From contig NZ_VCPE01000015.1 in assembly GCF_005938105.1 (NCBI RefSeq), positions 92,507 to 156,506 on the forward strand: DNA of 64,000 nt, in the 5' to 3' direction. Origin of the DNA: Brucella haematophila (GTDB lineage Bacteria; Pseudomonadota; Alphaproteobacteria; Rhizobiales; Rhizobiaceae). Positions 6,916 to 63,817 of this stretch are shown here, one piece after another. The notes under the pieces were generated by a model, which was given only the letters and a program-made list of their open reading frames with translations, was not told the DNA's origin and ran no database searches. The position numbers and the translations under genes were made by a program. How positions within the stretch are numbered: position 1 is the first letter of the stretch; every line of letters starts with the position of its first letter.

Positions 6916-6923
6916 CGGATCGC

Positions 6924-8249: not shown

Positions 8250-8358
8250 GATGTATCTCCTGTTAGGCAGTCGAAAGAAACTGGGAGGACAGTTTTCTTC
8301 ACGGAACTGCAGCACGACAAACGCGCAAGGTTTGACTAAGGCCGGGTGACAAAGCCAC

Positions 8359-27254: not shown

Positions 27255-27273
27255 CATATCGAGGATCAAGAAA

Positions 27274-28281: not shown

Positions 28282-28308
28282 GAAAAACACCTAAAAATAG
28301 GGGAACAG

Positions 28309-29148: not shown

Positions 29149-29158
29149 GATCGCAGCC

Positions 29159-30292
29159 ATGTTGAAGAAGTTAAACCTGAACGCGACAAAAGACGGCACC
29201 GATATCAAACTGGCGGTGAAAGACCTCAGCAAGACATATGGTTCATTCACGGCTCTCCATCCCACTGATCTTGAATTGAAGGCCGGAGAGTTCATGACTC
29301 TCCTCGGCCCTTCGGGATCAGGGAAAACGACACTTTTGATGATGGTGGCCGGTTTGCTGAGTTCCGACTCCGGCGACCTCTGGATCGACGGTCGTCGCAC
29401 CACGAATGCTCCCCCGTGGGAGCGGGGCATCGGAATGGTGTTCCAGAACTATGCCCTTTTCCCCCATATGAGCGTCTTCGAGAATGTTGCCTTTCCTTTG
29501 CGGATGAGAAACGCACCACCCGAAGTCATCAAACGCGAAGTCACGAACGTCTTGCAGATGGTACAGTTGGAACACACTGCCAATAGGCGTCCGCGCGATC
29601 TTTCCGGCGGTCAACAACAACGCATCGCGCTGGCTCGCGCGTTCGTATTCAAACCTCATATTATTCTGATGGACGAACCGTTGGGGGCGCTCGACAAAAA
29701 TCTGCGCGATCAGCTGCAGCTCGAAATCAAGAATATCCATAAAACCCACAAAACAACGATCCTTTACGTTACACACGACCAGGGCGAAGCTCTAACCATG
29801 TCTGACCGGATCTGCCTGATGAACCACGGCAGGATCGAACAGCTGGATACCCCATCTGAACTGTATTTCAGGCCAAAAACGGTTTTTGCTGCGGACTTTC
29901 TGGGCGATTCAAACTTTATCGACGGCGAAGTCGTAAATCGCAATGGCGACTACGTGTATCTCGCGGCTAGTTTTGATAGCCAAACGATATTGCGAGGATA
30001 TGGCCCAACTTTAAGCATTGGCGATAAAGCCCGAATGATGGTTCGACCGGAACGCCTCAAACTTTCCGCAGACTTGCCACAAGATTGGAATGCTATCCCC
30101 GTCACGGTCAAGCAATCCATCTTTGTGGGCAGCTTTACCCGGCATTATGTCTCTGATCCCACGGGCGCTGAAATGGCCACGTTGGAGCTTACCTCGGGAC
30201 CAAATGGTCAACCCATGGCAGGGCAAAGAATGATGGCGGTATGGTCACCTGACAGCGCAGTGGTTCTGCCGAACACGTCGGGGAAATCGTGA
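29159..30292 (+). CDS. ABC importer ATP-binding protein, spermidine/putrescine-iron type (PotA-like)
   Basis: 377 residues from the ATG at 29159, which has a strong GGGGAGGTGAG upstream. Walker A GPSGSGKTT, signature LSGGQQQR, Walker B ILMDEPLGALD and H-loop THDQGEA are all present. A C-terminal TOBE domain (from about residue 280) is typical of PotA/FbpC. It energises the fused permease, whose start overlaps its stop (30289-30292). An upstream in-frame ATG at 28994 lies inside the aldolase gene and was rejected. Confidence 0.93.
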   Translation: MLKKLNLNATKDGTDIKLAVKDLSKTYGSFTALHPTDLELKAGEFMTLLGPSGSGKTTLLMMVAGLLSSDSGDLWIDGRRTTNAPPWERGIGMVFQNYALFPHMSVFENVAFPLRMRNAPPEVIKREVTNVLQMVQLEHTANRRPRDLSGGQQQRIALARAFVFKPHIILMDEPLGALDKNLRDQLQLEIKNIHKTHKTTILYVTHDQGEALTMSDRICLMNHGRIEQLDTPSELYFRPKTVFAADFLGDSNFIDGEVVNRNGDYVYLAASFDSQTILRGYGPTLSIGDKARMMVRPERLKLSADLPQDWNAIPVTVKQSIFVGSFTRHYVSDPTGAEMATLELTSGPNGQPMAGQRMMAVWSPDSAVVLPNTSGKS

Positions 30293-32055
30293 TGAACGTC
30301 AAAGCCATTAAAGGCAACCCCCAACCGTTCAATCTCTCTTTGCTTGTCGCGAAATGGGGTAAGATTGCGCCGGCGCTTGTTATTCTTATTCTCATCGCCA
30401 TCTTGCCAGTGGCCAGGCTCCTTGAGTTGAGCTTCCTGGACGGCGGCAAATGGAGCCTTGATCACTATGGCCGTCTGTTGTCCTCGCCTGTCTATCTGCG
30501 CGTCCTTGGCACGACGTTCCAGATAGCTGCACTGACAACAATTTTTACCCTGATCCTCAGCTATCCGATCACTTACTTTGCAGCCAAGCTGCCTCGACGT
30601 CAGAAGAACATGGTTCTTTTCGTCATCATGCTTTCATTCTGGTCAAGCTTTCTCATCAAGACCTTTGGCTGGATGGTGATTTTGAGCAAGAATGGGCTGC
30701 TTAGCCAATTGCTCGAACTGCTCGGCTTTGTGAGCGAACCCGTCGGTTTTCTCTACACACCAACTGCCGTCGTGATCGGCATGACACATGCCATGGTGCC
30801 GCTCTGCATATTGACCATGTTGCCGGTGTTCCAGTCCATTGATCACAATCTCTCAAAAGCGGCAATGGTATTGGGCGGCAAGCCGGGCAGCGTTTTCTGG
30901 CAAATTTATTTCCCACTGTCCTTCCCCGGCGTTACCGCCGCCGCTCTGCTCGTATTCATCACATCTCTTGGGTTCTTCATCGTACCGGCATTTCTGGGCG
31001 GCAGACTTCAGACGATGCTGACCCAGCTCATCATTGAGCAGATTCAGGAATATCTGAACTGGTCTTTTGCCGGAGCATTATCGCTCTTGCTGCTTCTGTC
31101 GGCTTTGCTGGTCTTCTGGATATATGATCACCTGATCGGCCTATCCGCCCTCGCTGGCACGTCTGATCAGGACAAGTCCGGTCGGTCCATGGGTTCGATC
31201 AGTCGGCGACTGATGAAAATCGCCTCACTCGTCTCGGATGGTCTTTATAATTGTGTGAACCGGCTGGTTGGTTCCCAGATGCAGAATGTCGGAAACCTCA
31301 CGCGCCATCTCGTCATCGGGTCGACGCTTTTGTTCCTGATTTTTCCGGTTCTCGTCATGGTGCCGGTTTCCTTCACCGAGGGCAGTCGCATGACCTGGCC
31401 ACCGGAAGGTTTCAGTCTCCGTTGGTACGAAGCCATTCTCACCTCTCAAATCTGGACGCAAGCCGCTATAAGATCATTGATCGTTGCCTTGGCCTCGGCA
31501 ACCTTGGCTGTCATCATCGGAACGCCCGCAGCTTTTGCGATTGCCCGCCAGAAACTGCCTGCCAAGACCTTGATCCTGGCGATCATTCTCTCGCCTTTGA
31601 TCATGCCTCGAATGGTCTTGGCCGTCGCACTGTTCTATCTTTATGCGCAGATCGGTCTCGTAGGCACTTATGTCGGGCTAATTATTGGCCACGCAATTCT
31701 GGCGATACCTTATGTCGTCATAACAATCATCGCCGTGCAAAAGCAGTTCGACCCGCGCTATGAACAGGCGGCGTGGAGCCTCGGCGCGCGCAAGACACAA
31801 ACGTTACGACGCATTACCCTGCCTCTTCTCAGCGGCGGCCTATTCTCGGCGTTCATCTTTGCAATGATCACATCATTTGATGAACTCACGATAGCCCTGT
31901 TCGTCACTGGTGGCTTAACCACGACACTTCCAAAGCAGATGTGGGACGACGCAATGAATATTGCCACGCCAACGCTTGCAGCACTTTCGACATTGATGCT
32001 GCTGTTTGTGGCCGGATTGACGCTGATAGGTCTCAGACTGCAATCCCGTAACTGA
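30289..32055 (+). CDS. Fused double ABC permease (PotB-PotC type)
   Basis: 588 residues containing two complete permease halves. The N-terminal half (~20-290) has a coupling loop LSKAAMVLGGKPGSVFWQIY. The C-terminal half (~325-585) has a coupling loop YEQAAWSLGARKTQTLRRIT. In most PotABCD-like importers the two halves are separate polypeptides; here they are one chain joined by a ~40-residue linker around SDQDKSGRSMGSISRRLMKI. With the PotA-like ATPase and the Tat-exported binding protein it forms a full importer. Confidence 0.92.
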   Translation: MMNVKAIKGNPQPFNLSLLVAKWGKIAPALVILILIAILPVARLLELSFLDGGKWSLDHYGRLLSSPVYLRVLGTTFQIAALTTIFTLILSYPITYFAAKLPRRQKNMVLFVIMLSFWSSFLIKTFGWMVILSKNGLLSQLLELLGFVSEPVGFLYTPTAVVIGMTHAMVPLCILTMLPVFQSIDHNLSKAAMVLGGKPGSVFWQIYFPLSFPGVTAAALLVFITSLGFFIVPAFLGGRLQTMLTQLIIEQIQEYLNWSFAGALSLLLLLSALLVFWIYDHLIGLSALAGTSDQDKSGRSMGSISRRLMKIASLVSDGLYNCVNRLVGSQMQNVGNLTRHLVIGSTLLFLIFPVLVMVPVSFTEGSRMTWPPEGFSLRWYEAILTSQIWTQAAIRSLIVALASATLAVIIGTPAAFAIARQKLPAKTLILAIILSPLIMPRMVLAVALFYLYAQIGLVGTYVGLIIGHAILAIPYVVITIIAVQKQFDPRYEQAAWSLGARKTQTLRRITLPLLSGGLFSAFIFAMITSFDELTIALFVTGGLTTTLPKQMWDDAMNIATPTLAALSTLMLLFVAGLTLIGLRLQSRN

Positions 32056-32092
32056 CCACTCTAATCACGCATAGAAAAACAAGGAGGGAACT

Positions 32093-33166
32093 ATGGACAA
32101 AATGATGATCTCAAGGCGCAGCCTTTTGAAGGCTACTGCGACAGGTGCAGGGATCGCGCTCGCAGCGCCGATGATCGCCCGCTCGGCCTTTGCACAAACC
32201 AAGCAGATAGTCATACGGACGCCGGGTGGTCCAACCGCCATAGCCATGCAGAAATCCTATTACGATCCTTTCGAGGCGGCCACAGGCATCAAGGTGGTAC
32301 CAGCCACCTCAACGAACGAGCCGGTCAGTCAGGTCAAGGCCATCGTCGAATCTGGCGCCAGAACATGGGATATGGCGGCATCGTTTTCGCGTTCAACCAT
32401 AAGTCAGCTGATCAAGGATGGTGATTATCTTGAGCCACACGGCCTGAGCGACGATCCAGCCATAGCTATAATACCCAAGGCCTATCGCAATGATTTTGCA
32501 GTGGGGCACGGTATTTATGCGACACCGATCACCTATCGAACGGATAAATATCAGACCGCTCCTAAAAACTGGGCTGACTTTTTCAATGTCGAACAGTTTC
32601 CCGGACCTCGCGCCATGCGCAAAAACCCCGTGGAAACACTCGAGATTGCACTGATGGCCGATGGTGTTCCCAGAGAGCAGCTATATCCTCTCGATATCGA
32701 CCGCGCCTTTAAGTCACTAAGCCGTATTAAGCCACATATTTCAAACTGGTGGACAACTCCGGTGCAAGCGACGGAACTGATCGTCAACGGCGACGTGTAT
32801 ATGGTTCCCGTGTGGGTAAACTTCCCCGTCGCGGCTATCGGCGATGGTGCTCCGCTCGGATTAAGTTGGCAGAACAACATCTTCGGTGTCGACATGTTTA
32901 CGATACTCAAAGGATCGCCAAATGTGGATGCTTGCCGGGAGTTCATAAAATTCAGTCTTCAGGCAAAACAGCAGGCAGGCGTTGCAAGCCAGGTCGCCAT
33001 CGCACCTACCAATCCCGACGCGTTCGCCTTGATACCACCTGAAAGGGCAAAGCTTCTCGCCAGCAGCCCCGAAAACTCAAAGGATGCCGTGGAGATCAAT
33101 AGCGATTTCTGGTCCGCCAACCGAGACGCGATTTCGGATCGCTTCAATGAATGGCTACTCGAATAG
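32093..33166 (+). CDS. Periplasmic binding protein of the PotD/PotF-like importer
   Basis: 357 residues. It has a twin-arginine-like signal MMISRRSLLKATATGAGIAL then MIARSAFAQ, and the mature part has an SBP_bac_8/PotD fold. GGAGGG precedes the ATG at 32093 by a few bases. The ligand cannot be read off. Given the two RraA proteins and the HpcH aldolase, an organic acid is more likely than a polyamine. Confidence 0.9.
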   Translation: MDKMMISRRSLLKATATGAGIALAAPMIARSAFAQTKQIVIRTPGGPTAIAMQKSYYDPFEAATGIKVVPATSTNEPVSQVKAIVESGARTWDMAASFSRSTISQLIKDGDYLEPHGLSDDPAIAIIPKAYRNDFAVGHGIYATPITYRTDKYQTAPKNWADFFNVEQFPGPRAMRKNPVETLEIALMADGVPREQLYPLDIDRAFKSLSRIKPHISNWWTTPVQATELIVNGDVYMVPVWVNFPVAAIGDGAPLGLSWQNNIFGVDMFTILKGSPNVDACREFIKFSLQAKQQAGVASQVAIAPTNPDAFALIPPERAKLLASSPENSKDAVEINSDFWSANRDAISDRFNEWLLE

Positions 33167-33209
33167 TCAGGCAAGTATGGACAATCATTTCGAGTGGACA
33201 GGAGAGATC

Positions 33210-33863
33210 ATGGAAAAAGCGAGCTATCAATTCTCCACGCCTGTGCTTGCCAACGCATCCGAGCGGGTACTGGGCCCGTGGACGCCAAGGCAGATGATCC
33301 TTGACGGCCTCGTTTCATTACGCAAGGACGACAAGGCAACAGGAAGAGCCTATACAATAAGGCTTCGACGTTCATCAAAGCCATCAAGAGCAAATGCCGC
33401 CCGGACATTGGCGGCTTACGACGCCGCGCCCGCCGACAGCATTGTGTTCATTCAGCTCGTGGATGATCTCGGCGGCGCCGTAGTCGGTGATATTATCGCG
33501 CATCGGCTTAAAAAGCTGAAGGTCGCGGGCGTCGTTGTTGAAGGTCCGGTACGGGATATTGACGGTCTCATCCAGTTTGGCCCACCGATCTGGTATCGGA
33601 ATGCAGTCGCATCGGGCCTCGAACTGGCTGAAACAGAAGTCGAAGTGCAGGTTGCGCTTCAACTGGGCACAGCATTGGTTGAACCCGGGTCAATCATATC
33701 GATCGACCGCGATGGTGTGTTCGTCTTCCCCGGCACGCATTATGAAGCACTGGTTAGCCAGGCAGATACGATTACGGCCAAAGAGGCATTGGTTCATGCG
33801 GCCCTGGAAAACAACGAGACCTTGTTGAGGGTCCTGAACCTGGACGACGAGATAACCCCATGA
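33210..33863 (+). CDS. RraA-family protein, probable 4-hydroxy-4-methyl-2-oxoglutarate-type aldolase (copy 1)
   Basis: 217 residues from the ATG at 33210 (AGGAGA upstream; ATGs at 33177 and 33084 are alternatives). The active-site loop DDLGGAVVGDIIAHRLKK and the metal/substrate motif VVEGPVRDIDGL (Arg-Asp pair) are kept, as in class II RraA aldolases. These enzymes need a divalent metal, cleave 4-hydroxy-2-oxo-dicarboxylates to pyruvate, or decarboxylate oxaloacetate. Its stop overlaps the next paralogue (ATGA at 33860). Confidence 0.88.
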   Translation: MEKASYQFSTPVLANASERVLGPWTPRQMILDGLVSLRKDDKATGRAYTIRLRRSSKPSRANAARTLAAYDAAPADSIVFIQLVDDLGGAVVGDIIAHRLKKLKVAGVVVEGPVRDIDGLIQFGPPIWYRNAVASGLELAETEVEVQVALQLGTALVEPGSIISIDRDGVFVFPGTHYEALVSQADTITAKEALVHAALENNETLLRVLNLDDEITP

Positions 33864-33886
33864 TCGGGAAGCAGAAAGGCATTATC

Positions 33887-34543
33887 ATGTCAAACGAGAC
33901 AGAGTTTTCATCCGCAAAGGATGGCGTGGGCAGTTCAACCATCTGGGATGTCACGGAACATCTACACGGAGGGTTCGCCATTCGTCACAGAACCGTAGAT
34001 ACATTGAAAGCACTTCGGCCAACGGATCGTGCGATAGGCGTGGCCTATACAATCAGAATGCGTCGCGCCAAAAACAGCGACCCTTCAAACAGACTGCAGT
34101 TTCTACAGGCATATGACAACGCTCCGAAGGGCGCGGTGGTTGTCGTTGAAGTGCAGACCGACATTGGCGGCGTACCTATGGGTGATCTGGTGGCTCATCG
34201 ATTGGCGGCAATTGGGGTCAGCGGCGTTGTAATCAATGGACCTATCCGGGATACGGCTGGTCTGGCGAATGTTGCTCCACCAACGTGGTACAAGAACATT
34301 ACACCTGCGGGCCCAATCTCGAAAGAGATAACGGTGGAAGTTGGTGTTGATGTGGTCGTTGGTGGCGCGGTCGTCCGTAGCGGCGATCTTATCACTGCCG
34401 ATGCAGACGGCATAATGGTAACACCTCCCGGCGAAGCCGATGAGCTTGTGGATGCAGCGAATGCCGTCGTGGAGCGCGAAGCCGCAATACATCAACGTCT
34501 TTCGAATGGCGAAAGCCTCGCTTCCATTCTGATGGGGCAGTAG
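33887..34543 (+). CDS. RraA-family protein, probable aldolase/decarboxylase (copy 2)
   Basis: 218 residues from the ATG at 33887, preceded by AAAGG; a coupled ATG at 33860 overlapping the previous stop is also possible. The loop TDIGGVPMGDLVAHRLAA and motif VINGPIRDTAGL carry the same Arg-Asp pair as copy 1, but the two proteins are clearly diverged. Two unequal neighbours of a family that forms trimers or hexamers suggest either a hetero-oligomer or two substrates. Confidence 0.88.
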   Translation: MSNETEFSSAKDGVGSSTIWDVTEHLHGGFAIRHRTVDTLKALRPTDRAIGVAYTIRMRRAKNSDPSNRLQFLQAYDNAPKGAVVVVEVQTDIGGVPMGDLVAHRLAAIGVSGVVINGPIRDTAGLANVAPPTWYKNITPAGPISKEITVEVGVDVVVGGAVVRSGDLITADADGIMVTPPGEADELVDAANAVVEREAAIHQRLSNGESLASILMGQ

Positions 34544-51624: not shown

Positions 51625-52161
51625 ATGATCAGATCTGGCACCTCGCTTTATCATCGCCATCGTTATCCCGCAGAGATTATCGCCGAAGCAGTGCGGCTGT
51701 ATTTCGGCCTTCCCCTCAGCTTTCGCATGGTGGAAGACATGCAGGCCTATCGCGGGATCATCTTCAGCTATAAGACGGTGCGTGAATGGGCAGAGAAATT
51801 CGGGCGCGCCTATGCCAACAGTATCCGTCGCCGCACACCGCACCTGGGCAACAAGTCACATTTGGATGAATGCGTGATCTCGATCAAGAGTTAGCATTAT
51901 ATTCTCTCGCGAGCGGTTGATCAGAATGGGTTTGTGCTGGATGTTCTTGTCCAGAAACGCCGCAATACAAGGGCCGCCAAGCGCTTCATGCGCAAGCTTC
52001 TATCTGGGCAAGGCTGCTCACCGCGTGTCATGGTCACCGACAGGCTTGGCTCTTATGATGCGGCCAACGGAGAAATCGGCCTGACGGACTGCGGTCATCG
52101 TCAGTTACGACAAGCCGTCACAAGCATGTGGCGGGAAATCGCGCACTTGAACGCTGCATAG
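51625..52161 (+). pseudogene. IS6-family transposase, nonsense mutation and lost C-terminus
   Basis: The frame starts MIRSGTSLYHRHRYPAEIIA and carries the IS6/IS26-type signature MVEDMQAYRGIIFSYKTVRE. It stops at 51892-51894 after ISIKS, where functional relatives have a GK-containing turn. The same frame then continues HYILSRAVDQNGFVLDVLVQ and KRFMRKLLSGQGCSPRVMVT, so a single stop splits it. After SYDAANGEIGL the family similarity ends and the reading runs into the right copy of the 57-bp repeat. The catalytic C-terminus is lost, so this is a non-autonomous relic. Confidence 0.85.
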
Positions 52162-52202
52162 GAGTTTCGTTAAAGAACGAATTCCGTCCCCGCTCAGGTT
52201 AA
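52146..52202 (-). repeat. 57-bp inverted repeat, right copy
   Basis: Read on the minus strand it begins TTAACCTGAGCGGGGACGG, differing from the left copy at 6 of 57 positions. On its outer side it abuts the truncation point of a second IS6 transposase, with GGGCGCTGTTACG between them. Confidence 0.8.
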
Positions 52203-52214
52203 CGTAACAGCGCC

Positions 52215-52542
52215 CATCAAGAACGTAGCCATTGGCGTCAACGGCGCGCCACAGCCAATATTTCTTTCCCTTGATCGTCACCACCATTTCATCAAGCTGC
52301 CATTTCTCGGCAAAGTGACCTCGCGAGCGCTGACGGAGTTGGTGGGCGAATTTAAGGTCAAACTTTTCAGCCCATTCCGAGACAGTCTGGAATGAAACCT
52401 CAATACCGCGCTCGGCACGCAGATCCTCGATGTCGCGAAAGCTGAGCGGGAACCGGCAATTGAGCCAGACCGCATGGGCGATAATCTCGGCAGGAAAGCG
52501 GTGACGTCGAAAATGGGCAGGTTGGGCTTCGGTCATAGCCAT
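52215..52542 (-). pseudogene. IS6-family transposase, N-terminal fragment
   Basis: Starts MAMTEAQPAHFRRHRFPAEI and carries DIEDLRAERGIEVSFQTVSE and MVVTIKGKKYWLWRAVDANG. After GYVLD it runs into non-transposase sequence near 52215. It is truncated by or joined to the structure bounded by the 57-bp repeats. The DDE aspartate after WRAVD is kept, but the remaining catalytic residues are gone. Confidence 0.85.
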
Positions 52543-52987: not shown

Positions 52988-53683
52988 TTAGTCGTTAGGT
53001 AGGAACTGTAATCCTGAAGCTAGATGTCGGTTCATGTGATAGACAAAATCTATCGCTTCACCAGACCGGAGCGCCTCGAGAATCCGATCATGTTCTTCGG
53101 CCGCCTCTTTCAATGCTCCGCGCTGAGACTTGCCCAACTCCATCAGCCTGAGAACAACTGGTTTGAGCATGCCATATATTTCGGACAATGTATGATTTCC
53201 GGCCGCATCCACCATGATCTGATGGAATCGGAAATCATATTCAGATGCCGATGCCGCGTCGCTAGCGTCGGCCATCGTGCGATTTGCGCTATCCATTAAC
53301 TGGAGATCAGCTTCGCTCATTTTGCCGACAAGCAAGCCTGCCAGGTTCATCTCGGTCAGCCTTCGAAATCCCTGTATATCGGTGAACATGTCGGTAGATA
53401 TTTCAAGAGAAACCGAAAAGAAGTCGTGCATGGCGGCACGCCGACGGTCCGTAATGACAATACCAGCCTTTTGTCGAGACTCTATAATTCCATAAGTTTT
53501 AAGAGTCCGAACCGCTTCACGAATGGTATTTCGTCCGGTATCGAACATCGATGCTAGCTCGTTCTCTGTAGGAAGAACGTCGCCTACCGTTAAACCCTTT
53601 TCTCGAATTAAAGAACGAATTTGGTCGATCGCCTGATCAACCGCAGACTGCTTGTCCGCCTTCATAGGATCAATTTCAACCAT
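52988..53683 (-). CDS. GntR/FadR-family transcriptional regulator (FCD effector domain)
   Basis: 231 residues from the ATG at 53683 (AAAGGG upstream). N-terminal winged helix: VLPTENELASMFDTGRNTIR then EAVRTLKTYGIIESRQKAG. C-terminal all-helical FCD domain with metal-binding His: FHQIMVDAAGNHTLSEIYG and HMNRHL. It is likely to regulate the neighbouring sugar-acid genes; two similar 16-bp sites in the divergent promoter at 58885-58984 are candidate targets. Confidence 0.9.
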   Translation of the reverse strand: MVEIDPMKADKQSAVDQAIDQIRSLIREKGLTVGDVLPTENELASMFDTGRNTIREAVRTLKTYGIIESRQKAGIVITDRRRAAMHDFFSVSLEISTDMFTDIQGFRRLTEMNLAGLLVGKMSEADLQLMDSANRTMADASDAASASEYDFRFHQIMVDAAGNHTLSEIYGMLKPVVLRLMELGKSQRGALKEAAEEHDRILEALRSGEAIDFVYHMNRHLASGLQFLPND

Positions 53684-53783
53684 CGCGTTCCCTTTCCAAC
53701 CCGTCGTCAAGATTATCTATAGATGTCAGCTTCTGGAGGCCAGCCTGATCAGTTAATGATCTAAAATCTTGTTGGAAATCGAA

Positions 53784-53829: not shown

Positions 53830-55140
53830 TCAGTCCATCACAGGCAAAGGTTCAGCTTTTCCTACGATGAAGGCGTATGAAAACGCCCCGGTTAGCGCCA
53901 TGCAAGAGGCGAGCAGGAAGACCGGTGCATAACTTCCACCGAACTTGTCGAGCAGAAAGCCAAAGACCAAGGGACTGATGATACCGGCAATATTTGCCGC
54001 AAAATTTTGGATCCCGCCAATTGAAGCAACATGTCGCGAGCTTGGCGCAATATCCGCAGGAAGCGCCCAGATTGCTGTGCCAGCAACCGCGAGACTGCTG
54101 TAAGAAATGGCCAAAAAAAACAGCGCCGCGTAAAGAGATTCCACGCTTGCGGCCGGCAGGATTGCAGCGCCGCCAATCATGCCACCAACCATGATTGTTT
54201 TACGGACTTTCGTAACATCGGCGCCTTTACGAATATGATGATCAGCATATGCACCGATAGACCACGCAGAAACAACGGCGAGAAGGCCCGGAATCATTCC
54301 GTATAAACCAAGCGACTTCAGATCGAGCCCGCGCGCATCTTTGAGAAATGAGGGAAACCAGGTGAGGAAGAAATAGATCACGAAGTTCAGGCAGAAAAAG
54401 CCCAACATCATACCCCAGATCGTCCGATAGCGGAAAAGAGACTTCCACGACAACCGGGCCGCCGTTTCATCGTCATTTTCAGCGGTGCGTCCGCCATTTT
54501 CAGCGATATAGCGCCGTTCTTCCTCATTGGCCCACGGATGCTCGCCTGGAGAACGATAGGTTTTATACCATGCAAACGCCCAAACCACACCAATCGCGCC
54601 AAGAATCAGGAACGAGTAATGCCAAGTTGCGAACGCAATGATGGCCGTCACAATGGGCAGCGCGAGCACAGTGCCTACTCTCGAGCCAGAATCGATAACG
54701 GCGACCGAAAAAGCGCGTTCGCTACGGGGAAACCACTGCGACGTCGCTTTGATTGCGGATGGATATGCCGGCGCTTCGCCTGCACCAAGTGCGAAACGCA
54801 CCGCGAAGAAGCTCCAGAAGCTGTTTGCAAGCGGCGTGAGCATCGTAAATACAGACCACCAAATTGCTGCAAGCGAAAAGGTTTTCCGTGCGCCCAATTT
54901 GTCGGTGATCCATCCAGCAAATAGCATCATGCCATCATACGCCCAAAAGAAGGCTCCGAGGATGAGACCTTTCTGAGTATTTGTGAGCTCTAGCCCCAAT
55001 TCAGCGTCGATGAATGGAAGCGCGACGCTCATATTGGCGCGATCAAGATAATTGATCGTCATCCCCGCGAAACACATGAACAGAATGAAATATCTGGCCC
55101 GTGTTTTCACGCCAGATGATGACAAATGTTGTTGAAGCAT
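53830..55140 (-). CDS. MFS anion:cation symporter (sugar-acid transporter, GarP/ExuT-like)
   Basis: 436 residues, 12 predicted membrane helices. Family marks include NYLDRANMSVALPFIDAELG in the first helix region, GWITDKLGARKTF between helices 2 and 3, and RFALGAGEAPAYPSAIKATS. This subfamily carries galactarate, glucarate, galactonate or hexuronate across the inner membrane with protons. Being next to mannonate dehydratase and a GntR regulator supports a sugar-acid substrate. It is transcribed on the minus strand in the same direction as the enolase-like, kinase and dehydratase genes. Confidence 0.9.
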   Translation of the reverse strand: MLQQHLSSSGVKTRARYFILFMCFAGMTINYLDRANMSVALPFIDAELGLELTNTQKGLILGAFFWAYDGMMLFAGWITDKLGARKTFSLAAIWWSVFTMLTPLANSFWSFFAVRFALGAGEAPAYPSAIKATSQWFPRSERAFSVAVIDSGSRVGTVLALPIVTAIIAFATWHYSFLILGAIGVVWAFAWYKTYRSPGEHPWANEEERRYIAENGGRTAENDDETAARLSWKSLFRYRTIWGMMLGFFCLNFVIYFFLTWFPSFLKDARGLDLKSLGLYGMIPGLLAVVSAWSIGAYADHHIRKGADVTKVRKTIMVGGMIGGAAILPAASVESLYAALFFLAISYSSLAVAGTAIWALPADIAPSSRHVASIGGIQNFAANIAGIISPLVFGFLLDKFGGSYAPVFLLASCMALTGAFSYAFIVGKAEPLPVMD

Positions 55141-55244
55141 TCTTATCCTCCTCCGATATGCTTAACGCATCCCCCGGATAATTTTCCGATTGGGATACCG
55201 TTCTCGGCAGCCGCTCATCCACGACCACCGGAACGCCTTACGTG

Positions 55245-56528
55245 TTAATTGAACGCCAAAGCTCGCCCTGCAGCAAAGCTCGCTGATGCGCCCATGGCCT
55301 CCTCAATCCGCAGACACTCATTCCACTTAGCCATCCGCTCGGACCTCGAAAATGATCCGACTTTGAATTGCCCCGCGTCCCAACCAATAGCGAGATGAGC
55401 AATGGTCAAATCTTCAGTCTCACCAGAACGGGCCGAAACGATTGTGCCGAGCCCAGCTTCTTTGCCCGCATCAAGCGCAGCCTTCGTTTCACTGACTGTT
55501 CCCGCCTGATTTAACTTAATCAACACAGCAGTGGCCGCCTTTGCCGCGACACCCGCGCGGACGCGGTCTGCATTGGTGACAAAGAAGTCGTCACCGATCA
55601 CCTGACATCTTTCGCCATGGGCTTGCGTGAAAGCAATGAAGCCATCCCGATCATCTTCTGCGACGGGATCTTCAATGGAAACGATAGGATAGGTCTCAAT
55701 CCATCGTCCGAGCATGTCGATCAGGTTGCTCGTGTCGAGTTTTTGCCCATCAAGTGCAAGCGTATACACTCCGTTTCGTCCGAATTCCGATGCGGCGACG
55801 TCAAGTGAAATAGCGATCTCGCTGCCCGGTTTGAAACCTGCGGCGTCAATGGCTTTAACGAGCGCATCCAGAGCTTCTTCATTGGATTTGAACGCGGGCC
55901 AGAATCCACCCTCGTCCGCAACACCTTGCAACCGTCCCGTTTGTTTCATGAAGGCACCGGCGGCGCGATAGACTTCAGCGGTCCAGTCAATAGCTTCGCG
56001 GAAAGACGTTGCGGCTGGGGCCATCACCATAAAATCTTGGATGTCGACCCTTTTTGCCGCATGGGCGCCGCCGCCGAAAATTTGAATCTCGGGTAAGGGC
56101 ATTCGTACGGGTTTTCCATCTGCAAGATATTGCCATAGCGGCAGGTGTGCTGCAGCGGCACGCGCATGCAGCACCGCCATGGAGGTCGCGACGAGCGCGT
56201 TGCCACCAAGCCGGCTTTTATTTGGCGTTCCGTCGAGGCCGATCAGCGTCGCGTCAATCCCATCCTGATCATCGGCATCGCGACCCGCAAGGGTTGCTGC
56301 GATTTCAACATTGACGTTGTTGACTGCATTCGAGACATCAAAGCCACCGAAAGCAGCCCCGCCATCCCTTAAGTCCACAGCTTCACCGCTGCCGGTCGAC
56401 GCACCAGCAGGCGCAATGGCGCGCCCCGTAAACCCGCCAGCCAAGGTGACTTCGGCTTCCACTGTTGGACGACCACGAGAGTCCCATACGCGGCGGCCTC
56501 TTATGCTCTTAATCGTCGTGTCAGTCAT
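55245..56528 (-). CDS. Enolase paralogue with altered active site
   Basis: 427 residues, full enolase length. Conserved: the swivel loop GASTGSGEA, His156, Glu206 in VADEGGFWPAF, metal ligands Asp243, Glu286 (SIEDP) and Asp313 (IGDDFF), Lys338 (LIKLNQ) and Lys389. Changed: the position of catalytic Glu168 is Asp165 (VDIQDF), and the otherwise near-invariant histidine before RSGETED (His373 in yeast enolase) is Ala366. These positions were aligned by eye. The gene overlaps the kinase gene by 8 bases and sits in a sugar-acid operon, so it is not the housekeeping glycolytic enzyme. It might still turn 2-phosphoglycerate to phosphoenolpyruvate slowly, or act on another phosphorylated acid. Confidence 0.88.
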   Translation of the reverse strand: MTDTTIKSIRGRRVWDSRGRPTVEAEVTLAGGFTGRAIAPAGASTGSGEAVDLRDGGAAFGGFDVSNAVNNVNVEIAATLAGRDADDQDGIDATLIGLDGTPNKSRLGGNALVATSMAVLHARAAAAHLPLWQYLADGKPVRMPLPEIQIFGGGAHAAKRVDIQDFMVMAPAATSFREAIDWTAEVYRAAGAFMKQTGRLQGVADEGGFWPAFKSNEEALDALVKAIDAAGFKPGSEIAISLDVAASEFGRNGVYTLALDGQKLDTSNLIDMLGRWIETYPIVSIEDPVAEDDRDGFIAFTQAHGERCQVIGDDFFVTNADRVRAGVAAKAATAVLIKLNQAGTVSETKAALDAGKEAGLGTIVSARSGETEDLTIAHLAIGWDAGQFKVGSFSRSERMAKWNECLRIEEAMGASASFAAGRALAFN

Positions 56529-57549
56529 GCTTGGACAACTCCGTGAGCCAATAATGTTTGATATGAGAAAGTGACGCGCCTCGCTGCTTGATCAGCAACC
56601 GGCTATTCCTGCGAACGAACTCGATGTCAGTTTCTTTGGTCAGATACTCGACAGGCGATTTACCATCGACGCGCGCCAGACTTAACGCGGGCAATAGCAA
56701 AGCTGCTCTCGCTTCAACGATTGTTCTGTCTTCCCAGTCGACGCCTTCGAGATAGCGCTGCGTTAACGCGGCGAAACTGAGAGCGTAATCTTTTGCCGAT
56801 GCTGGATTCCAAACAGCTTTGAGAAGAAGATGATTGAGGCAGAAAGCGAGGTCAAAAGCTGGATCGCCGTACCAGGCGCATTCCGCATCCAGCAATACAG
56901 GACCATTCGCCCCCATTAGAATGTTTTTGGGGCTCACGTCACCGTGCACCAGAGCTTTTCGTGTATTGAGAGTTTGTCGGGATAACTCGAACAACTGCCC
57001 GGATAGATCGCCATGTTTATGTGCGATCGCTTCGATGTAAGGCTCCAAGCGGATCGAATGGAATACTTCATCGTTCGCGAAACGGCGTGAGACTTCAGTT
57101 CGATTTGCGGTTGACGAATGTATCGTTGATAGTATTTCGCCCAGCTTTGAAGCAAATTGGATATCCACCCTTCCGCGAAGAAGCTCGGCCTTCCACACTG
57201 GATTAGTTGCAGGCTCCAAGTAATCCATCGCAAACACGCCTTTATCGGGATCATGAGCGAGAATGTGCGGCGCGGAGTGACTGACGGCCTTACCCGCAAC
57301 CAAGAGCCATTCAACTTCACTCGCATTTCTGGAAACAGGCGCGTTCCATTCCTGAGAAACACGAAGCCGTGCCAAGGCTTTCTTGACGACGAATGAACTG
57401 GTTGGCGTAATGATCTTCCAGATATCTGATGCCACGCCTCCTGTTAGGGGCGTTGCATTGAAAGCATCAGCTTCCACCAATCCGCTTGCCGTCAAAAATT
57501 CGGCGATGACCGGATCTAATACCGCATCTTTCTTTTGTGTACAGGCCAT
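56521..57549 (-). CDS. APH-family (aminoglycoside phosphotransferase fold) small-molecule kinase
   Basis: 342 residues from the ATG at 57549 (the ATG at 57582 adds 11 odd residues). The catalytic loop is LVHGDVSPKNILM with the metal-binding Asp in LLDAECAWYGDPAFDLAF. The ATP-binding Lys is probably in SFVVKKALARL. It would phosphorylate a hydroxyl of a small metabolite in the cytoplasm. Coupling to the enolase paralogue by an 8-base overlap and to the dehydratase upstream suggests a substrate such as glycerate rather than an antibiotic. It could be read as an aminoglycoside kinase by naive annotation. Confidence 0.85.
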   Translation of the reverse strand: MACTQKKDAVLDPVIAEFLTASGLVEADAFNATPLTGGVASDIWKIITPTSSFVVKKALARLRVSQEWNAPVSRNASEVEWLLVAGKAVSHSAPHILAHDPDKGVFAMDYLEPATNPVWKAELLRGRVDIQFASKLGEILSTIHSSTANRTEVSRRFANDEVFHSIRLEPYIEAIAHKHGDLSGQLFELSRQTLNTRKALVHGDVSPKNILMGANGPVLLDAECAWYGDPAFDLAFCLNHLLLKAVWNPASAKDYALSFAALTQRYLEGVDWEDRTIVEARAALLLPALSLARVDGKSPVEYLTKETDIEFVRRNSRLLIKQRGASLSHIKHYWLTELSKHD

Positions 57550-57655
57550 TTTTGAAACTCTGTATTGGCCACAACCACACATAGGAAGTCGCGACTATAA
57601 GGTCTCCGCTGACAGAGGTGCCGCCAACGGAGATTTCCAGATAAAGGTATAAAGC

Positions 57656-58867
57656 TTAGTTGACCGGCGCCATCAGTGGCCGCAAACCCAATTCAAGCAG
57701 CTGATCCGTGGTTTCCATAACGCCACGAAGCTCAGCAAGACCTTTCAAACGCCCTATGCATGAATATCCTGGATTGACGTTTTTGTTGGCGTCATCAACC
57801 AGCACATGGCCGTGGTCTGGCCGCATTGGTATCAGGAAATCTAGGAGACCCGCATCACGCCTGCGCCGCTCTTCTTTTAGTAGCTCAACGATCACACCAA
57901 CCATATTCGTATCTCCTTCGAGATGGTCGGACTCCATGAATGAGCCATCAGGGTCCCGGGTTACATTTCTCAAATGTGCAAAATGAATACGTGGACCAAA
58001 CTCTTTTGCCATAGCCACTACATCGTTATCTGGTCGCGATGTAAGGGAGCCTACGCAAAGCGTGAGACCATTTGCGTTACTGTCTACACATTCGAGAATT
58101 TTACGGATATCAGCGGCTGTGGAGACAACGCGCGGAAGACCAAACAACGAGAACGGCGGATCATCCGGATGAATAGCTAGCTTTACGCCGTACTCCTCAG
58201 CAATCGGGACGATTTCACGCTGGAATTCATGCAGGTTCTCACGCATCTGGTCATCGGTGATGTCATCAAACTGGGCAATCCGCTCACGAATACCTTCCCG
58301 GGTATGGGAATCTTCGCCGCCCGGCAATCCCGCGATGATATTATGCTCTAGCTGTGCGATGTATGCTTCAGTGAACCTTTTAAACCGACCATTCGCGGCC
58401 TCAATCAACTCGGAAGGATAGTCGCTTTCCGCGTTCTTGCGCTTCAGGACAAGGAGATCATAAGCAACGAAATCAACCATGTCGAAGCGAAGCGCAAGGC
58501 CGCCAGTCGCTGTTTTGTGCCTCAGGTCAGTACGTGTCCAGTCCACAACTGGCATGAAATTATAGCAAACAACCGGGACTCCGGCCTTTCCCAGGTTCAT
58601 CAAGCTATCTTTCCAGGCGTCAACATACTGACGCCATGGCCCCTGACGAAGCTTGATCGACGTATGAACGGGGATCGACTCACAAACCGACCAAATCAGG
58701 CCTTTCTCGCGGACTAGATTGTGATGCTGGTCGATTTCCTCGCGCGCCCAAACCCGCCCATCGTAAATATGATGGAGAGCAGTCACGATTCCATGGGCTC
58801 CCGCCTGCTTTGCATCGTCCAACGATACAGGATCGGCCGTTCCGAACCACCGCCAACTCTGAAGCAT
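57656..58867 (-). CDS. uxuA: D-mannonate dehydratase (UxuA)
   Basis: 403 residues from the ATG at 58867 (GGAGG upstream, giving the expected N-terminus MLQSWRWFGTADPVSL). TIM-barrel metalloenzyme. Recognisable segments: GAHGIVTALHHIYDGRVWAR, WSVCESIPVHTSIKL, CYNFMPVVDWTRTDL, IHPDDPP, ESDHLEGDTNMVGVI and MRPDHGHVLVDD. It removes water from D-mannonate to give 2-keto-3-deoxygluconate, the usual step after hexuronate isomerisation and reduction. It is the first gene of the minus-strand group and diverges from the SDR/FAH pair. Confidence 0.93.
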   Translation of the reverse strand: MLQSWRWFGTADPVSLDDAKQAGAHGIVTALHHIYDGRVWAREEIDQHHNLVREKGLIWSVCESIPVHTSIKLRQGPWRQYVDAWKDSLMNLGKAGVPVVCYNFMPVVDWTRTDLRHKTATGGLALRFDMVDFVAYDLLVLKRKNAESDYPSELIEAANGRFKRFTEAYIAQLEHNIIAGLPGGEDSHTREGIRERIAQFDDITDDQMRENLHEFQREIVPIAEEYGVKLAIHPDDPPFSLFGLPRVVSTAADIRKILECVDSNANGLTLCVGSLTSRPDNDVVAMAKEFGPRIHFAHLRNVTRDPDGSFMESDHLEGDTNMVGVIVELLKEERRRRDAGLLDFLIPMRPDHGHVLVDDANKNVNPGYSCIGRLKGLAELRGVMETTDQLLELGLRPLMAPVN

Positions 58868-58884
58868 TCCAAATCCTCCTGCTA

Positions 58885-58984
58885 ATATGTGGGACAAATT
58901 AAACGCAAACTTCGATAATGCAAGCGTTTTTCTCGGATATAGTCGTGTTTTGTACGGACATGATGTTTATATTGTCCCATATAT
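58885..58984. promoter_or_regulatory. Divergent promoter with paired ATATRTGGGACAAW sites
   Basis: ATATGTGGGACAAATT at 58885-58900 (plus strand) and the reverse complement of 58969-58984, ATATATGGGACAATAT, match at 13 of 16 positions and face each other. They lie near the uxuA start and between it and the SDR start, so they are good candidates for the FCD-type regulator at 52988. The mapping is inferred. Confidence 0.6.
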
Positions 58985-59140
58985 ATCTTGATTGGCCCTC
59001 TACATTTCAATATGGTGCCGAGGACTTATAGGGCGCGGAGATGAGCGCAGGCTGATTTCCAAACGCTGTATTGTTCTCCCTCAAATCAGCGGCCCTGCAA
59101 TCAAAGCCACGACGAATGACAATCAAGACTGGAGGAATAC

Positions 59141-59896
59141 ATGACGAGTGAACCGAAGCCTTCCGGGCGACTATCAGGGAAACGCGCTTTTGTTACGGCT
59201 GGGGCGCAGGGGATTGGTCGAGCAATTGCGATAAGATTTGCCGAAGAAGGAGCGATTGTGACCGTCGCCGATCTTAACGGTGAAAAATTGGCTGAGCTTA
59301 CTCGGTTCGGCGTCAAAACGATGTCATTTGATGCGTCCGATGGGGCTGCGGTTGCAGCAGCTTTCAGCGAACATCGTAATCTGGATATTCTGGTAAACTG
59401 TGTGGGCTGGGTGCACCATGGGACAATTCTCGATGCTGATGAAGCAGCGTGGAATCAATCATTTAAGCTAAATGTGGACCCGATGTATCATGCAATACGA
59501 GCGGCGCTTCCCGATATGCTTGCAGCCGGCAAAGGGAGCATCGTCAATATTGCGTCTGCGGCGTCCTCCCTTAAAGGTTTCCCCAACCGCGCAGCCTATG
59601 GAACAACAAAGGCAGCCGTTATTGGCCTTACTAAAGCGGTGGCCGCTGATTTCGTAGGGCGCGGCATTCGATGCAATGCAATCTGTCCAGGTACGATTGC
59701 TTCTCCATCTCTTGAGGAACGCATCAACGCGTTTGACGATCCTGTTGCCGCACGTGAGGCTTTTATCTCCAGGCAACCTATGGGCCGACTTGGAACTCCT
59801 GAAGAAGTTGCCGCGCTTGCAACATATCTGGGATCCGATGAAAGCCGCTTTATGACGGGTGGCGTCGTGCTCATCGATGGCGGCGCAACGAACTGA
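59141..59896 (+). CDS. SDR dehydrogenase, L-2-keto-3-deoxyfuconate dehydrogenase-like
   Basis: 251 residues. Rossmann motif VTAGAQGIGRAIA, catalytic Ser in NIASAAS, YxxxK as YGTTK, and a C-terminus FMTGGVVLIDGGATN. The sequence looks like the SDR partner of FAH-type hydrolases in L-fucose/L-rhamnose non-phosphorylating pathways, which oxidise a 2-keto-3-deoxy acid at C4. Followed by the FAH gene 18 bases later. Given the neighbouring UxuA, its natural substrate might be 2-keto-3-deoxygluconate or its enantiomer. Confidence 0.85.
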   Translation: MTSEPKPSGRLSGKRAFVTAGAQGIGRAIAIRFAEEGAIVTVADLNGEKLAELTRFGVKTMSFDASDGAAVAAAFSEHRNLDILVNCVGWVHHGTILDADEAAWNQSFKLNVDPMYHAIRAALPDMLAAGKGSIVNIASAASSLKGFPNRAAYGTTKAAVIGLTKAVAADFVGRGIRCNAICPGTIASPSLEERINAFDDPVAAREAFISRQPMGRLGTPEEVAALATYLGSDESRFMTGGVVLIDGGATN

Positions 59897-59914
59897 TTAC
59901 TAAAGGAAAACAAA

Positions 59915-60766
59915 ATGAAATTTCTTCGTTATGGACAACCCGGAAAAGAGCGTCCAGCTGTTCTTGATGGCGACGGCAACGCGCGGGACATCAGTTCACT
60001 TGTCGCAGACATCAATCCCGAAACAATCGGCAGTTTGACCGCGCTCAATCTGGAAAGTATCTCAAAATTGCCGCTCATCGATTCATCTGAGCGGATCGGA
60101 CCATGCGTAGGCGGTTCCAGCAAATTCGTTTGCATCGGCCTCAACTACGCCGACCACGCAGCCGAGACAGGTGCCCCAATTCCCGAAGAGCCTATTATTT
60201 TCCTAAAAGCAAATAGCGCGATTTGTGGCCCCAACGACGATATTATGATCCCACCCGGATCACAGAAGACGGACTGGGAAGTTGAACTTGGGATTATCAT
60301 TGGCAAAACTGCGCGACATGTTTCTATTGAACAAGCTCACGAGTACATCGCCGGTTACTCCCTGATCAATGACGTTTCAGAACGGGAATACCAGGTCGAA
60401 CGCGGCGGACAGTGGGATAAAGGCAAAGGCTATGACACATTCGGGCCGATTGGCCCCTGGCTGGTTACTCCTGACGAAATTCCTGATCCCCATAATCTCC
60501 ATATGTGGCTGGAAGTGGATGGGCGGCGCTATCAAAACGGCAGCACCAACACAATGATTTTCAAAGTGCACGAATTGGTTAGTTACGTCAGCCAATTCAT
60601 GTCTCTCCTACCCGGTGATGTGATTAGCACGGGCACACCTCCTGGAGTTGGTCTTGGCCAGCGGCCTCCGGTTTACCTTCGCGCAGGACAGACCATCGAG
60701 TTAGGCATCGAGGGCCTCGGCGTGCAACGGCAGCGCACCATTCCTTCTCCATACAGCAACAACTAG
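59915..60766 (+). CDS. FAH-family hydrolase, 2,4-diketo-3-deoxy acid hydrolase-like
   Basis: 283 residues of the fumarylacetoacetate hydrolase family. Metal ligands: the E-x-E pair in TDWEVELGIIIGKTA and Asp in SLINDVSEREYQVERGGQWD. The segment KFVCIGLNYADHAAETGAP is typical of diketo-deoxy-fuconate/rhamnonate hydrolases. It would cleave a 2,4-diketo-3-deoxy acid to pyruvate plus a hydroxyacid. Together with the SDR it forms the plus-strand arm of the sugar-acid cluster. A hairpin terminator follows at 60779. Confidence 0.88.
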   Translation: MKFLRYGQPGKERPAVLDGDGNARDISSLVADINPETIGSLTALNLESISKLPLIDSSERIGPCVGGSSKFVCIGLNYADHAAETGAPIPEEPIIFLKANSAICGPNDDIMIPPGSQKTDWEVELGIIIGKTARHVSIEQAHEYIAGYSLINDVSEREYQVERGGQWDKGKGYDTFGPIGPWLVTPDEIPDPHNLHMWLEVDGRRYQNGSTNTMIFKVHELVSYVSQFMSLLPGDVISTGTPPGVGLGQRPPVYLRAGQTIELGIEGLGVQRQRTIPSPYSNN

Positions 60767-62873: not shown

Positions 62874-63254
62874 ATGGGACGAGCATTAAGCACTGATTTG
62901 CGATCACGTGTTTTGAAGGCTGCAAGCGAAGGATTGTCGGCACGCAACGCGGGTTTACGGTTCGGGGTGTCCGCAGCGACAGCAATCCGCTGGGGTTCTC
63001 GTGCTCGGGATGGTGAGTTGGAAGCACGGCATCCGGGTCGACGACGCGGTTCGAGACTTGATGCCCATGAAGATTTCATCGTGATTATGATTGAAGAGCG
63101 CAAAGACGTCACGCTTAATGAGATGGTTGCGCGTCTGGCCAAAGAGCGCGGCTTCCAGATTGTGCGGAGTGCTTTGAATGCCTGGCTACGGGCCCGTGGC
63201 TTTACTTACAAAAAAAGACCGCACATGCATTGGAGCAGGAACAGCCAGGCCTGA
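62874..63254 (+). CDS. IS630-family transposase, N-terminal frame
   Basis: 126 residues, helix-turn-helix DNA-binding part (STDLRSRVLKAASEGLSARN then AGLRFGVSAATAIRW) and a second HTH (KDVTLNEMVARLAKERGFQI). A run of seven A at 63210-63216, in the codons for YKK, is a good slippage site for a -1 shift into the next frame. The C-terminal residues after that are not part of the functional protein. Confidence 0.88.
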   Translation: MGRALSTDLRSRVLKAASEGLSARNAGLRFGVSAATAIRWGSRARDGELEARHPGRRRGSRLDAHEDFIVIMIEERKDVTLNEMVARLAKERGFQIVRSALNAWLRARGFTYKKRPHMHWSRNSQA

Positions 63255-63817
63255 TGAGCCGGCACGAGGCGTGGTTTGAAAGCCAGCTTGATCTTGATCT
63301 TGAAAGGCTCGTTTTCATCGACGAGACAGGACTGAATACGAAGATGGCGCGGTTGCATGGGCGCAGCCTACGAGGCGAAAGATGTCACGCAGGCATCCCA
63401 CATGGTCACTGGAAAGCAACGACGTTTACCGGTGCGTTCCGGCTCTCAGGCATGACAGCACCCATGGTGCTGGCTGGCGCAATGAATGCCGACGCCTTTC
63501 GTGCTTTCATCAAACAAGTGCTCGTGCCGACACTGACACCCGGTGACATCGTGATCATGGACAATTTGCCTGCTCATAAGATTGTCGGCATCAGAGAAGC
63601 GATTGAGGAAACACGTGCGCAGCTGCAGTATCTGCCACCCTACAGTCCAGACTTCAATCCAATAAAGATGGCATTCTCGAAACTCAAAGCACATCTGCCT
63701 GGAAAAGCCGAACGAACTGTCGAAACTCTATGGGATGCCGTCCGCCAAGCCATAACATTGTACGAACCAACCGAGTGCGCCAACTACTTTGCTGCTTGCG
63801 GTTATGATCCAACATAA
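63230..63817 (+). CDS. IS630-family transposase, catalytic DDE frame
   Basis: 195 residues in the -1 frame relative to the first frame. The DDE catalytic residues are D in LVFIDETGLNTKM, D in GDIVIMDNLPAHK, and the acidic/Asn position in PPYSPDFNPIKMAFSKLK, where most relatives have E in NPIE. Here the residue after NPI is K, so the third acidic residue may be changed. It has its own ATG but is probably expressed by frameshifting from 62874. Confidence 0.88.
   Translation: MEQEQPGLMSRHEAWFESQLDLDLERLVFIDETGLNTKMARLHGRSLRGERCHAGIPHGHWKATTFTGAFRLSGMTAPMVLAGAMNADAFRAFIKQVLVPTLTPGDIVIMDNLPAHKIVGIREAIEETRAQLQYLPPYSPDFNPIKMAFSKLKAHLPGKAERTVETLWDAVRQAITLYEPTECANYFAACGYDPT

What the first reader, a model, noticed from the sequence alone, without database searches (positions are those of the whole stretch)
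53830..60766. Possible aldolase-free sugar-acid route ending in phosphoenolpyruvate
Inference from gene set: UxuA makes 2-keto-3-deoxygluconate; the SDR oxidises it; the FAH hydrolase splits the diketo-acid to pyruvate and glycerate; the APH-fold kinase phosphorylates glycerate; the enolase paralogue converts 2-phosphoglycerate to PEP. No KDG kinase or KDPG aldolase gene is present in the cluster. SDR-FAH pairs are established for L-fucose and L-rhamnose acids; joining them to UxuA, a kinase and an enolase-like protein would be new to me.
Basis: inference. Interest (0 to 1): 0.7.

Follow-up and report, generated by a model that had tools for sequence, protein, structure and literature searches.

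The report
Sugar-acid route with modified enolase
A bacterial gene cluster looks like an unusual way of burning a six-carbon sugar acid without an aldolase, and it carries a widespread kinase and altered-enolase pair, for which I found no description in print, that probably feeds the leftover three-carbon acid into central metabolism.

Summary
The genes are there as described, with a GntR regulator just outside the interval. The grouping is real: GntR, UxuA, SDR, FAH, kinase and enolase paralogue recur together in Sinorhizobium chiapasense, and the kinase-enolase pair is adjacent in 108 of 120 non-redundant loci. The SDR-FAH pair is a paralogue of an L-fucose pair elsewhere in the same genome. 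Its SDR keeps the substrate arginines but has Ala where fucose enzymes have the methyl-contacting Trp, so a 6-hydroxy substrate is likely. Pyruvate plus glycerate, then phosphoglycerate and phosphoenolpyruvate, is therefore plausible. The main correction: the enolase is not an ordinary spare. In 107 of 107 paralogues the residue matching Glu168 is Asp, in 106 the one matching His373 is Ala; 31 of 31 housekeeping enolases keep both. The genome already has a D-glycerate-kinase-family gene and a normal enolase. This points to a different phospho-acid, most simply L-2-phosphoglycerate. Stereochemistry is unproven: UxuA points to the D series, the SDR and FAH relatives to the L series. No activity was measured.

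The parts
52988..53710 (-). GntR/FCD-family regulator, probable regulator of the cluster
   Evidence: Pfam GntR and FCD; a 38.7% identical GntR lies in the Sinorhizobium chiapasense cluster
53830..55140 (-). MFS transporter, probable uptake of a sugar acid
   Evidence: best NCBIfam model TIGR00893, D-galactonate transporter, 304.2 bits, below its cut-off of 395
55245..56528 (-). enolase paralogue (ENO2) with altered active site
   Evidence: TIGR01060 489 bits, cut-off 300; family-wide changes at the E168, H373 and mostly S39 equivalents; AlphaFold mean pLDDT 93.5
56521..57582 (-). APH-fold kinase (KIN), overlaps ENO2 by 8 nt
57656..58867 (-). UxuA-family sugar-acid dehydratase (likely start 58867; ORF opens at 58897)
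   Evidence: TIGR00695 478 bits, cut-off 199.55; nearest solved relative 4eac; the only UxuA match in the genome
58868..59140 (.). divergent promoter region with an inverted repeat (58885-58904 and 58965-58984), possible operator pair
   Evidence: 20-nt arms, 85% complementary, 60 nt between; binding not tested
59141..59896 (+). SDR, probable 2-keto-3-deoxy sugar-acid 4-dehydrogenase
   Evidence: nearest solved relative 8y11, taken to be the L-KDF 4-dehydrogenase of PMC11199699 because its residues match that paper's numbering; R148-T183-R192-R214 pattern kept, W252 position is Ala
59915..60766 (+). FAH-family hydrolase, probable 2,4-diketo-3-deoxy sugar-acid hydrolase
   Evidence: nearest solved relative 8gsr L-2,4-diketo-3-deoxyrhamnonate hydrolase; NF053535 398.5 bits, below cut-off 500; 66.5% identical to the FAH gene of an Ewingella L-fucose cluster

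Best explanation
The cluster encodes an aldolase-free oxidative route for a six-carbon aldonate. MFS takes the acid up. UxuA dehydrates it to a 2-keto-3-deoxy acid. SDR oxidises C4. FAH hydrolyses the 2,4-diketo acid to pyruvate and glycerate. The kinase phosphorylates the 2-hydroxyl of glycerate, and ENO2 removes water to give phosphoenolpyruvate. I commit to L-glycerate and L-2-phosphoglycerate as somewhat more likely than the D forms, because that best explains a dedicated, remodelled enolase. Shown: gene content, recurrence of the set, family-wide active-site changes, a separate fucose-type paralogous set. Inferred: every substrate, the phosphorylation site, the stereochemistry.
For: Full set in S. 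chiapasense, there joined to a further SDR, an SMP-30/gluconolactonase-family gene, a second UxuA-family protein and a sugar-type periplasmic binding protein, i.e. probably oxidation of a free sugar. KIN and an enolase adjacent in 108 of 120 loci. Other sugar-acid dehydratase families accompany the pair: IlvD family with SDR-FAH-ENO2-KIN (L060), MR/MLE family with KIN-ENO2-SDR (L061), galactarate/altronate dehydratase family in L144. SDR position 252 is Trp in 2 of 2 fucose-type enzymes compared and Ala in the window; Ile in 7 of 7 KIN-linked SDRs aligned (5 of them re-checked). Characterised L-KDFDH has kcat/Km 1480 for L-KDGal and 75.2 for D-KDG. D-glycerate-kinase-family gene and housekeeping enolase already present. 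PEP carboxylase, a 2-hydroxyacid dehydrogenase-family gene and KIN are consecutive in Rhizobium CIAT894, its enolase gene 4.4 kb off on the other strand, which fits PEP as product.
Against: UxuA enzymes are known for D-mannonate, which would give D-glycerate (recalled), and the S. chiapasense UxuA looks like ordinary ones. The window FAH is closer to fucose-cluster FAHs (66.5%; 61% to the own fucose-type one) than to the window-like KIN-linked FAHs (51-54%). The 2-hydroxyacid dehydrogenases found in 29 of 118 kinase operons would be expected to make D-glycerate (inference). In two Kaistia-type loci UxuA-KIN-ENO2 occurs with no FAH; L038 has only a 34% identical SDR on the other strand, L096 none. 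25 of 118 called operons are just KIN and an enolase gene, some cut by contig ends, so the pair is not tied to this pathway. Conserved K345 and E211 equivalents do not obviously suit an L substrate (inference).
Confidence: 0.45

Rival explanations
1. One reading: D-mannonate to D-KDG, D-glycerate, D-2-phosphoglycerate and PEP, with ENO2 a slightly diverged second enolase.
For: UxuA family membership; enolase equivalog cut-off passed; metal ligands and R374, S375, K396 equivalents kept in 107 of 107, K345 in 106; 2-hydroxyacid dehydrogenase and PEP carboxylase contexts.
Against: E168D in 107 of 107 and H373A in 106 of 107 paralogues but in 0 of 31 housekeeping enolases; the genome already has a MOFRL gene and an enolase, and of 33 other kinase genomes 28 have MOFRL and 31 have at least two enolase matches.
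Confidence: 0.25
2. KIN and ENO2 act on another 2-hydroxy acid with a different group at C3, for example 3-sulfolactate (phosphorylated, then sulfite eliminated to give PEP) or a four-carbon aldonate; the remodelled C3 pocket and extra arginine bind that group.
For: R at position 160 in 98 of 107 ENO2 and Trp at 210 in 101 of 107; subunits resembling sulfopyruvate decarboxylase precede the pair in L138 (scores below cut-off); 2-hydroxyacid dehydrogenase neighbours.
Against: No sulfur gene was noticed among the cluster genes; FAH cleavage of a hexonate gives a plain C3 acid; five ENO2s (L147, L149, L150, L153, L154) lack R160 and W210 but keep E168D and H373A.
Confidence: 0.15
3. The kinase phosphorylates an earlier intermediate (aldonate or 2-keto-3-deoxy acid) and ENO2 acts on a phosphorylated sugar acid, with SDR and FAH on a parallel branch.
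For: UxuA-KIN-ENO2 without FAH in two Kaistia-type loci; kinase fold closest to a sugar kinase.
Against: 25 of 118 called operons hold only KIN and an enolase gene, which suits a small common metabolite.
Confidence: 0.1

Closest known systems
Non-phosphorylating L-fucose / L-rhamnose pathway (SDR plus FAH hydrolase; FucF-FucG, LRA5-LRA6)
   Same: Homologous SDR and FAH in tandem, in Ewingella beside a GntR gene too; same two-step logic releasing pyruvate and an acid
   Different: UxuA in place of L-fuconate dehydratase; SDR lacks the methyl-contacting Trp; kinase and enolase paralogue added; the genome keeps a separate fucose-type set
Branched Entner-Doudoroff and serine-cycle segments using glycerate 2-kinase and enolase
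   Same: Glycerate phosphorylated at C2, then to PEP, if the assignment is right
   Different: Kinase is APH-fold, not one of the three glycerate kinase classes described in PMC2063504 (passages read); C3 acid comes from a hydrolase, not from an aldolase plus dehydrogenase
Enolase (phosphopyruvate hydratase)
   Same: 46% identity with the own housekeeping enolase; metal ligands and lysine equivalents kept
   Different: E168D in all 107, H373A in 106, S39A in 97, W210 in 101, R160 in 98 of 107
Classical UxuA-KdgK-Eda hexuronate pathway
   Same: UxuA dehydratase
   Different: No KdgK or Eda in the cluster; no match to uronate isomerase UxaC in the genome

Membership tests
Phosphopyruvate hydratase (enolase) | score above the equivalog cut-off of TIGR01060 | tested here: met
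   489 bits, cut-off 300
Phosphopyruvate hydratase (enolase) | active-site set including E168 and H373 (yeast numbering, recalled) | tested here: not met
   D and A in the window protein; D in 107 of 107 and A in 106 of 107 ENO2; E and H in 31 of 31 housekeeping enolases
Phosphopyruvate hydratase (enolase) | turnover of D-2-phosphoglycerate | not testable with these tools
   needs an assay
L-2-keto-3-deoxyfuconate 4-dehydrogenase, type 1 | R148-T183-R192-R214 pattern and Ser-Tyr-Lys | tested here: met
   all present (residues from PMC11199699)
L-2-keto-3-deoxyfuconate 4-dehydrogenase, type 1 | conserved hydrophobic residue (most commonly Trp, Met, Phe, Leu) at position 252 near the C6 methyl | tested here: not met
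   Ala in the window (feature)
2,4-didehydro-3-deoxy-L-rhamnonate hydrolase (NF053535) | score above equivalog cut-off | tested here: not met
   398.5 bits, cut-off 500; the own fucose-type paralogue also falls below, 436.7
Mannonate dehydratase UxuA (TIGR00695) | score above equivalog cut-off | tested here: met
   478 bits, cut-off 199.55
Mannonate dehydratase UxuA (TIGR00695) | activity on D-mannonate rather than an epimer | not testable with these tools
   some otherwise conserved residues differ (for example positions 62, 272, 276), meaning unknown
S-methyl-5-thioribose kinase (TIGR01767) | score above equivalog cut-off | tested here: not met
   66.2 bits, cut-off 275; fold similar
Glycerate kinase classes I-III | class I, MOFRL or class III domain in the kinase | tested here: not met
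   only APH and Fructosamin_kin Pfam matches at E <= 0.001
Glycerate kinase (activity) | phosphorylates glycerate | not testable with these tools
   needs an assay

The most novel reading that the evidence does not exclude
ENO2 is a widespread family of true enolases recruited to a substrate other than D-2-phosphoglycerate, most simply L-2-phosphoglycerate made by a dedicated APH-fold L-glycerate 2-kinase, giving bacteria and haloarchaea a second entry to PEP that serves several sugar-acid routes, including an aldolase-free one that ends in pyruvate plus PEP.
Probability: 0.4. Interest if true: 0.8.

Novelty: new variant of a known kind. Interest (0 to 1): 0.6.

Why it matters
Enolase is normally treated as a one-reaction family, and the annotated plasmid records opened here call several of these paralogues phosphopyruvate hydratase or enolase. 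A family-wide change of two active-site residues, nearly always beside the same kinase, would be a clear case of new chemistry hidden under a housekeeping name. If the L-glycerate reading holds, it gives a fate for L-glycerate and completes an aldolase-free sugar-acid pathway. It is directly testable: 2-phospho-L-glycerate is sold commercially (catalogue item cited in PMC13228409).

Tried and rejected
6-deoxy-sugar-only reading: set aside because the genome has its own fucose-type SDR-FAH-fuconate dehydratase set with Trp at 252.

UxuA specificity positions (window plus three KIN-linked UxuAs against the 30 loci given, out of 170 genomes with a match there): the window and two Kaistia-type proteins share some unusual residues but the Sinorhizobium one looks ordinary, so nothing could be concluded about the C5 configuration.

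A mutarotase role that I had guessed for one S. chiapasense ORF was dropped: no Pfam match. GC content of the cluster is not unusual, so it does not show foreign origin; absence of an ENO2 match at E <= 1e-150 from 34 of 35 genomes of the genus and flanking transposase-like ORFs suggest an accessory segment only.

First clustering of neighbours was polluted by shadow ORFs and was replaced by codon-usage gene calling. A search for further operator copies gave no excess over chance (6 matches, 4.6 expected).

Literature: searches found no paper on this kinase-enolase pair or on this gene set; most subscription papers are not in that library. PMC11199699: abstract and sections 3, 5, 10, 13 read. 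PMC13406643, PMC13228409, PMC2063504: passages only. Others: search listing only. Yeast enolase numbering, the roles of its active-site residues and the D-mannonate specificity of UxuA are recalled.
Full report
Observation. A GntR/FCD regulator at 52988-53710 continues the minus-strand run. The layout is two divergent runs, UxuA-KIN-ENO2-MFS-GntR and SDR-FAH, sharing 58868-59140 with a 20-nt inverted repeat. KIN and ENO2 overlap by 8 nt.

Is the set real? I searched 397 genomes of the order for KIN: 34 match at E <= 1e-20, the own genome included. A scan of genome contigs found 451 stretches encoding relatives, of which the best 80 were kept; 32 plasmid records also match, of which I opened ten. 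From these I held 124 loci, L034-L157; four had the same kinase sequence as another locus and were dropped, leaving 120, the window not counted. An enolase gene lies on the same strand within 260 nt of KIN in 108 of 120. In 8 it is further off or on the other strand, and in 4 none is in the locus, three of these having under 130 nt of sequence downstream. These loci were chosen by similarity to KIN and are related to each other, so the figure is not an independent sample.

Other partners. In the same loci, FAH-family genes are 13 of 681 genes within 3.5 kb of KIN and 0 of 581 genes beyond 5 kb; 2-hydroxyacid dehydrogenases are 37 of 681 and 4 of 581. Sinorhizobium chiapasense plasmid pA carries SDR (54%), FAH (52%), ENO2 (61%), KIN (58%), an ORF without Pfam match, an SMP-30/gluconolactonase-family gene, a second UxuA-family protein (26%), another SDR, ABC-transporter genes with a sugar-type binding protein, and GntR (39%), and divergently a full UxuA (56%) (the permease and ATPase read by eye). 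I saw no counterpart of the MFS gene in that set. Elsewhere a different dehydratase accompanies the module: IlvD family with SDR-FAH-ENO2-KIN in L060, MR/MLE family with KIN-ENO2-SDR but no FAH in L061, and galactarate/altronate dehydratase family after KIN-ENO in L144. UxuA beside KIN-ENO2 without FAH occurs in L096 (Kaistia hirudinis) and L038 (same genus label as Kaistia genomes). KIN-ENO2-FAH-SDR is annotated beside sugar ABC and carboxylate transporters in Paracoccus seriniphilus and Roseibium aggregatum. In Rhizobium CIAT894, PEP carboxylase, a 2-hydroxyacid dehydrogenase-family gene and KIN are consecutive, with eno 4.4 kb away on the other strand. 25 of 118 called operons hold only KIN and an enolase gene.

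SDR and FAH. The best solved relatives are 8y11, matching the L-KDF 4-dehydrogenase of PMC11199699, and the L-2,4-diketo-3-deoxyrhamnonate hydrolase 8gsr. The same genome has a second pair at L231 beside an L-fuconate dehydratase 73% identical to the one in a fucose cluster of Ewingella; the window pair is 53% (SDR) and 61% (FAH) identical to it. The window SDR keeps R148, T183, R192, R214 and the catalytic triad. At position 252 it has Ala, the own fucose-type enzyme and Ewingella have Trp, and the seven KIN-linked SDRs over 40% identical to it have Ile. In the characterised enzyme Trp252 is closest to the C6 methyl and its replacement lowers activity on L-KDF specifically. That enzyme has kcat/Km 7900 for L-KDF, 1480 for L-KDGal, 641 for D-KDP and 75.2 for D-KDG. 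A 6-hydroxy substrate is thus plausible, with an L-series preference by homology only. Against this, the window FAH is closer to fucose-cluster FAHs (66.5%) than to the window-like KIN-linked ones (51-54%, and earlier).

Enolase paralogue. Compared with 31 housekeeping enolases (own plus 30 from kinase genomes), 107 ENO2 of at least 400 aa (106 of 111 cluster members plus the window) show D for E168 in 107, A for H373 in 106 (G in one), A for S39 in 97, W at 210 in 101 and R at 160 in 98. Housekeeping enolases show E, H, S and A in 31 of 31 at the first four, and P in 30 with A in one at 160. The H159, D246, E295, D320, R374, S375 and K396 equivalents are kept in all 107, E211 and K345 in 106 each. 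A first count on 109 sequences (minimum 380 aa) agreed. The housekeeping set forms one clade with support 1.0 in a FastTree tree. L147, L149, L150, L153 and L154 depart at S39, R160 and W210 together; rooted on the housekeeping set they are sister to the other 102 ENO2, with weak support (0.19 for the five, 0.76 for the rest). Of 33 kinase genomes, 31 have at least two enolase matches; the other two, G032 and G078, are fragmented assemblies.

Why the D-glycerate version is weak. The genome has a MOFRL-family gene, a family described as D-glycerate 2-kinases, and a housekeeping enolase; 28 of the 33 other kinase genomes also have MOFRL. It has no match to UxaC, so mannonate would not arise from glucuronate by the classical isomerase, and it has KDPG-aldolase-family genes elsewhere. 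A dedicated kinase plus a remodelled enolase make most sense if the phospho-acid is not D-2-phosphoglycerate. L-2-phosphoglycerate is the simplest candidate, since the L-fucose-type SDR and FAH act on acids whose C5 is L and would release L-glycerate from the 6-hydroxy analogue; a bacterial L-KDF dehydrogenase is reported to act on 2-keto-3-deoxy-L-galactonate (passage). Against it, UxuA points to the D series. I could not decide this by sequence.

Verdict. A real, recurring module and a plausible new variant of the SDR-hydrolase sugar-acid routes, attached to a kinase-enolase family for which my searches found no description. All reactions remain predictions.

Noticed in passing
window 25824-34543: FAD-linked oxidase, 2-hydroxyacid dehydrogenase, HpaI-type aldolase, ABC transporter and two RraA-like ORFs (named by eye); a 2-hydroxyacid dehydrogenase, an HpcH/HpaI aldolase and an RraA-like gene also sit in the KIN-ENO2 operon of L057.
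   Followed up: no
window 52105-52542 and 62874-63817: Transposase-like ORFs on both sides of the cluster (by eye); ENO2 at E <= 1e-150 is absent from the 34 other genomes of the genus searched, suggesting an accessory segment.
   Followed up: partly
L138:6442-7529: Two-subunit thiamine enzyme resembling sulfopyruvate decarboxylase (below cut-offs) directly before KIN-ENO2-2HADH; similar ORFs in L091 and L120.
   Followed up: partly
L151:6253-8978: Enterobacter plasmid with a KIN-like kinase and a divergent, 35% identical enolase-like ORF beside a biosynthesis-like gene set.
   Followed up: no
L231:8638-11646: A separate L-fucose-type SDR-FAH-fuconate dehydratase set in the same genome, useful as internal control.
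   Followed up: yes
window 6214-12315: Siderophore-type ORFs (phosphopantetheinyl transferase-like, monooxygenase-like, 1318-aa NRPS), by eye.
   Followed up: no
L079, L090 and L048: KIN-ENO2 and a different FAH with a TRAP transporter gene and a DUF6807 protein (Pfam in L079; others by eye); L079 and L090 also with a 2-hydroxyacid dehydrogenase and two MocA-type oxidoreductases: a second recurrent pathway context.
   Followed up: no
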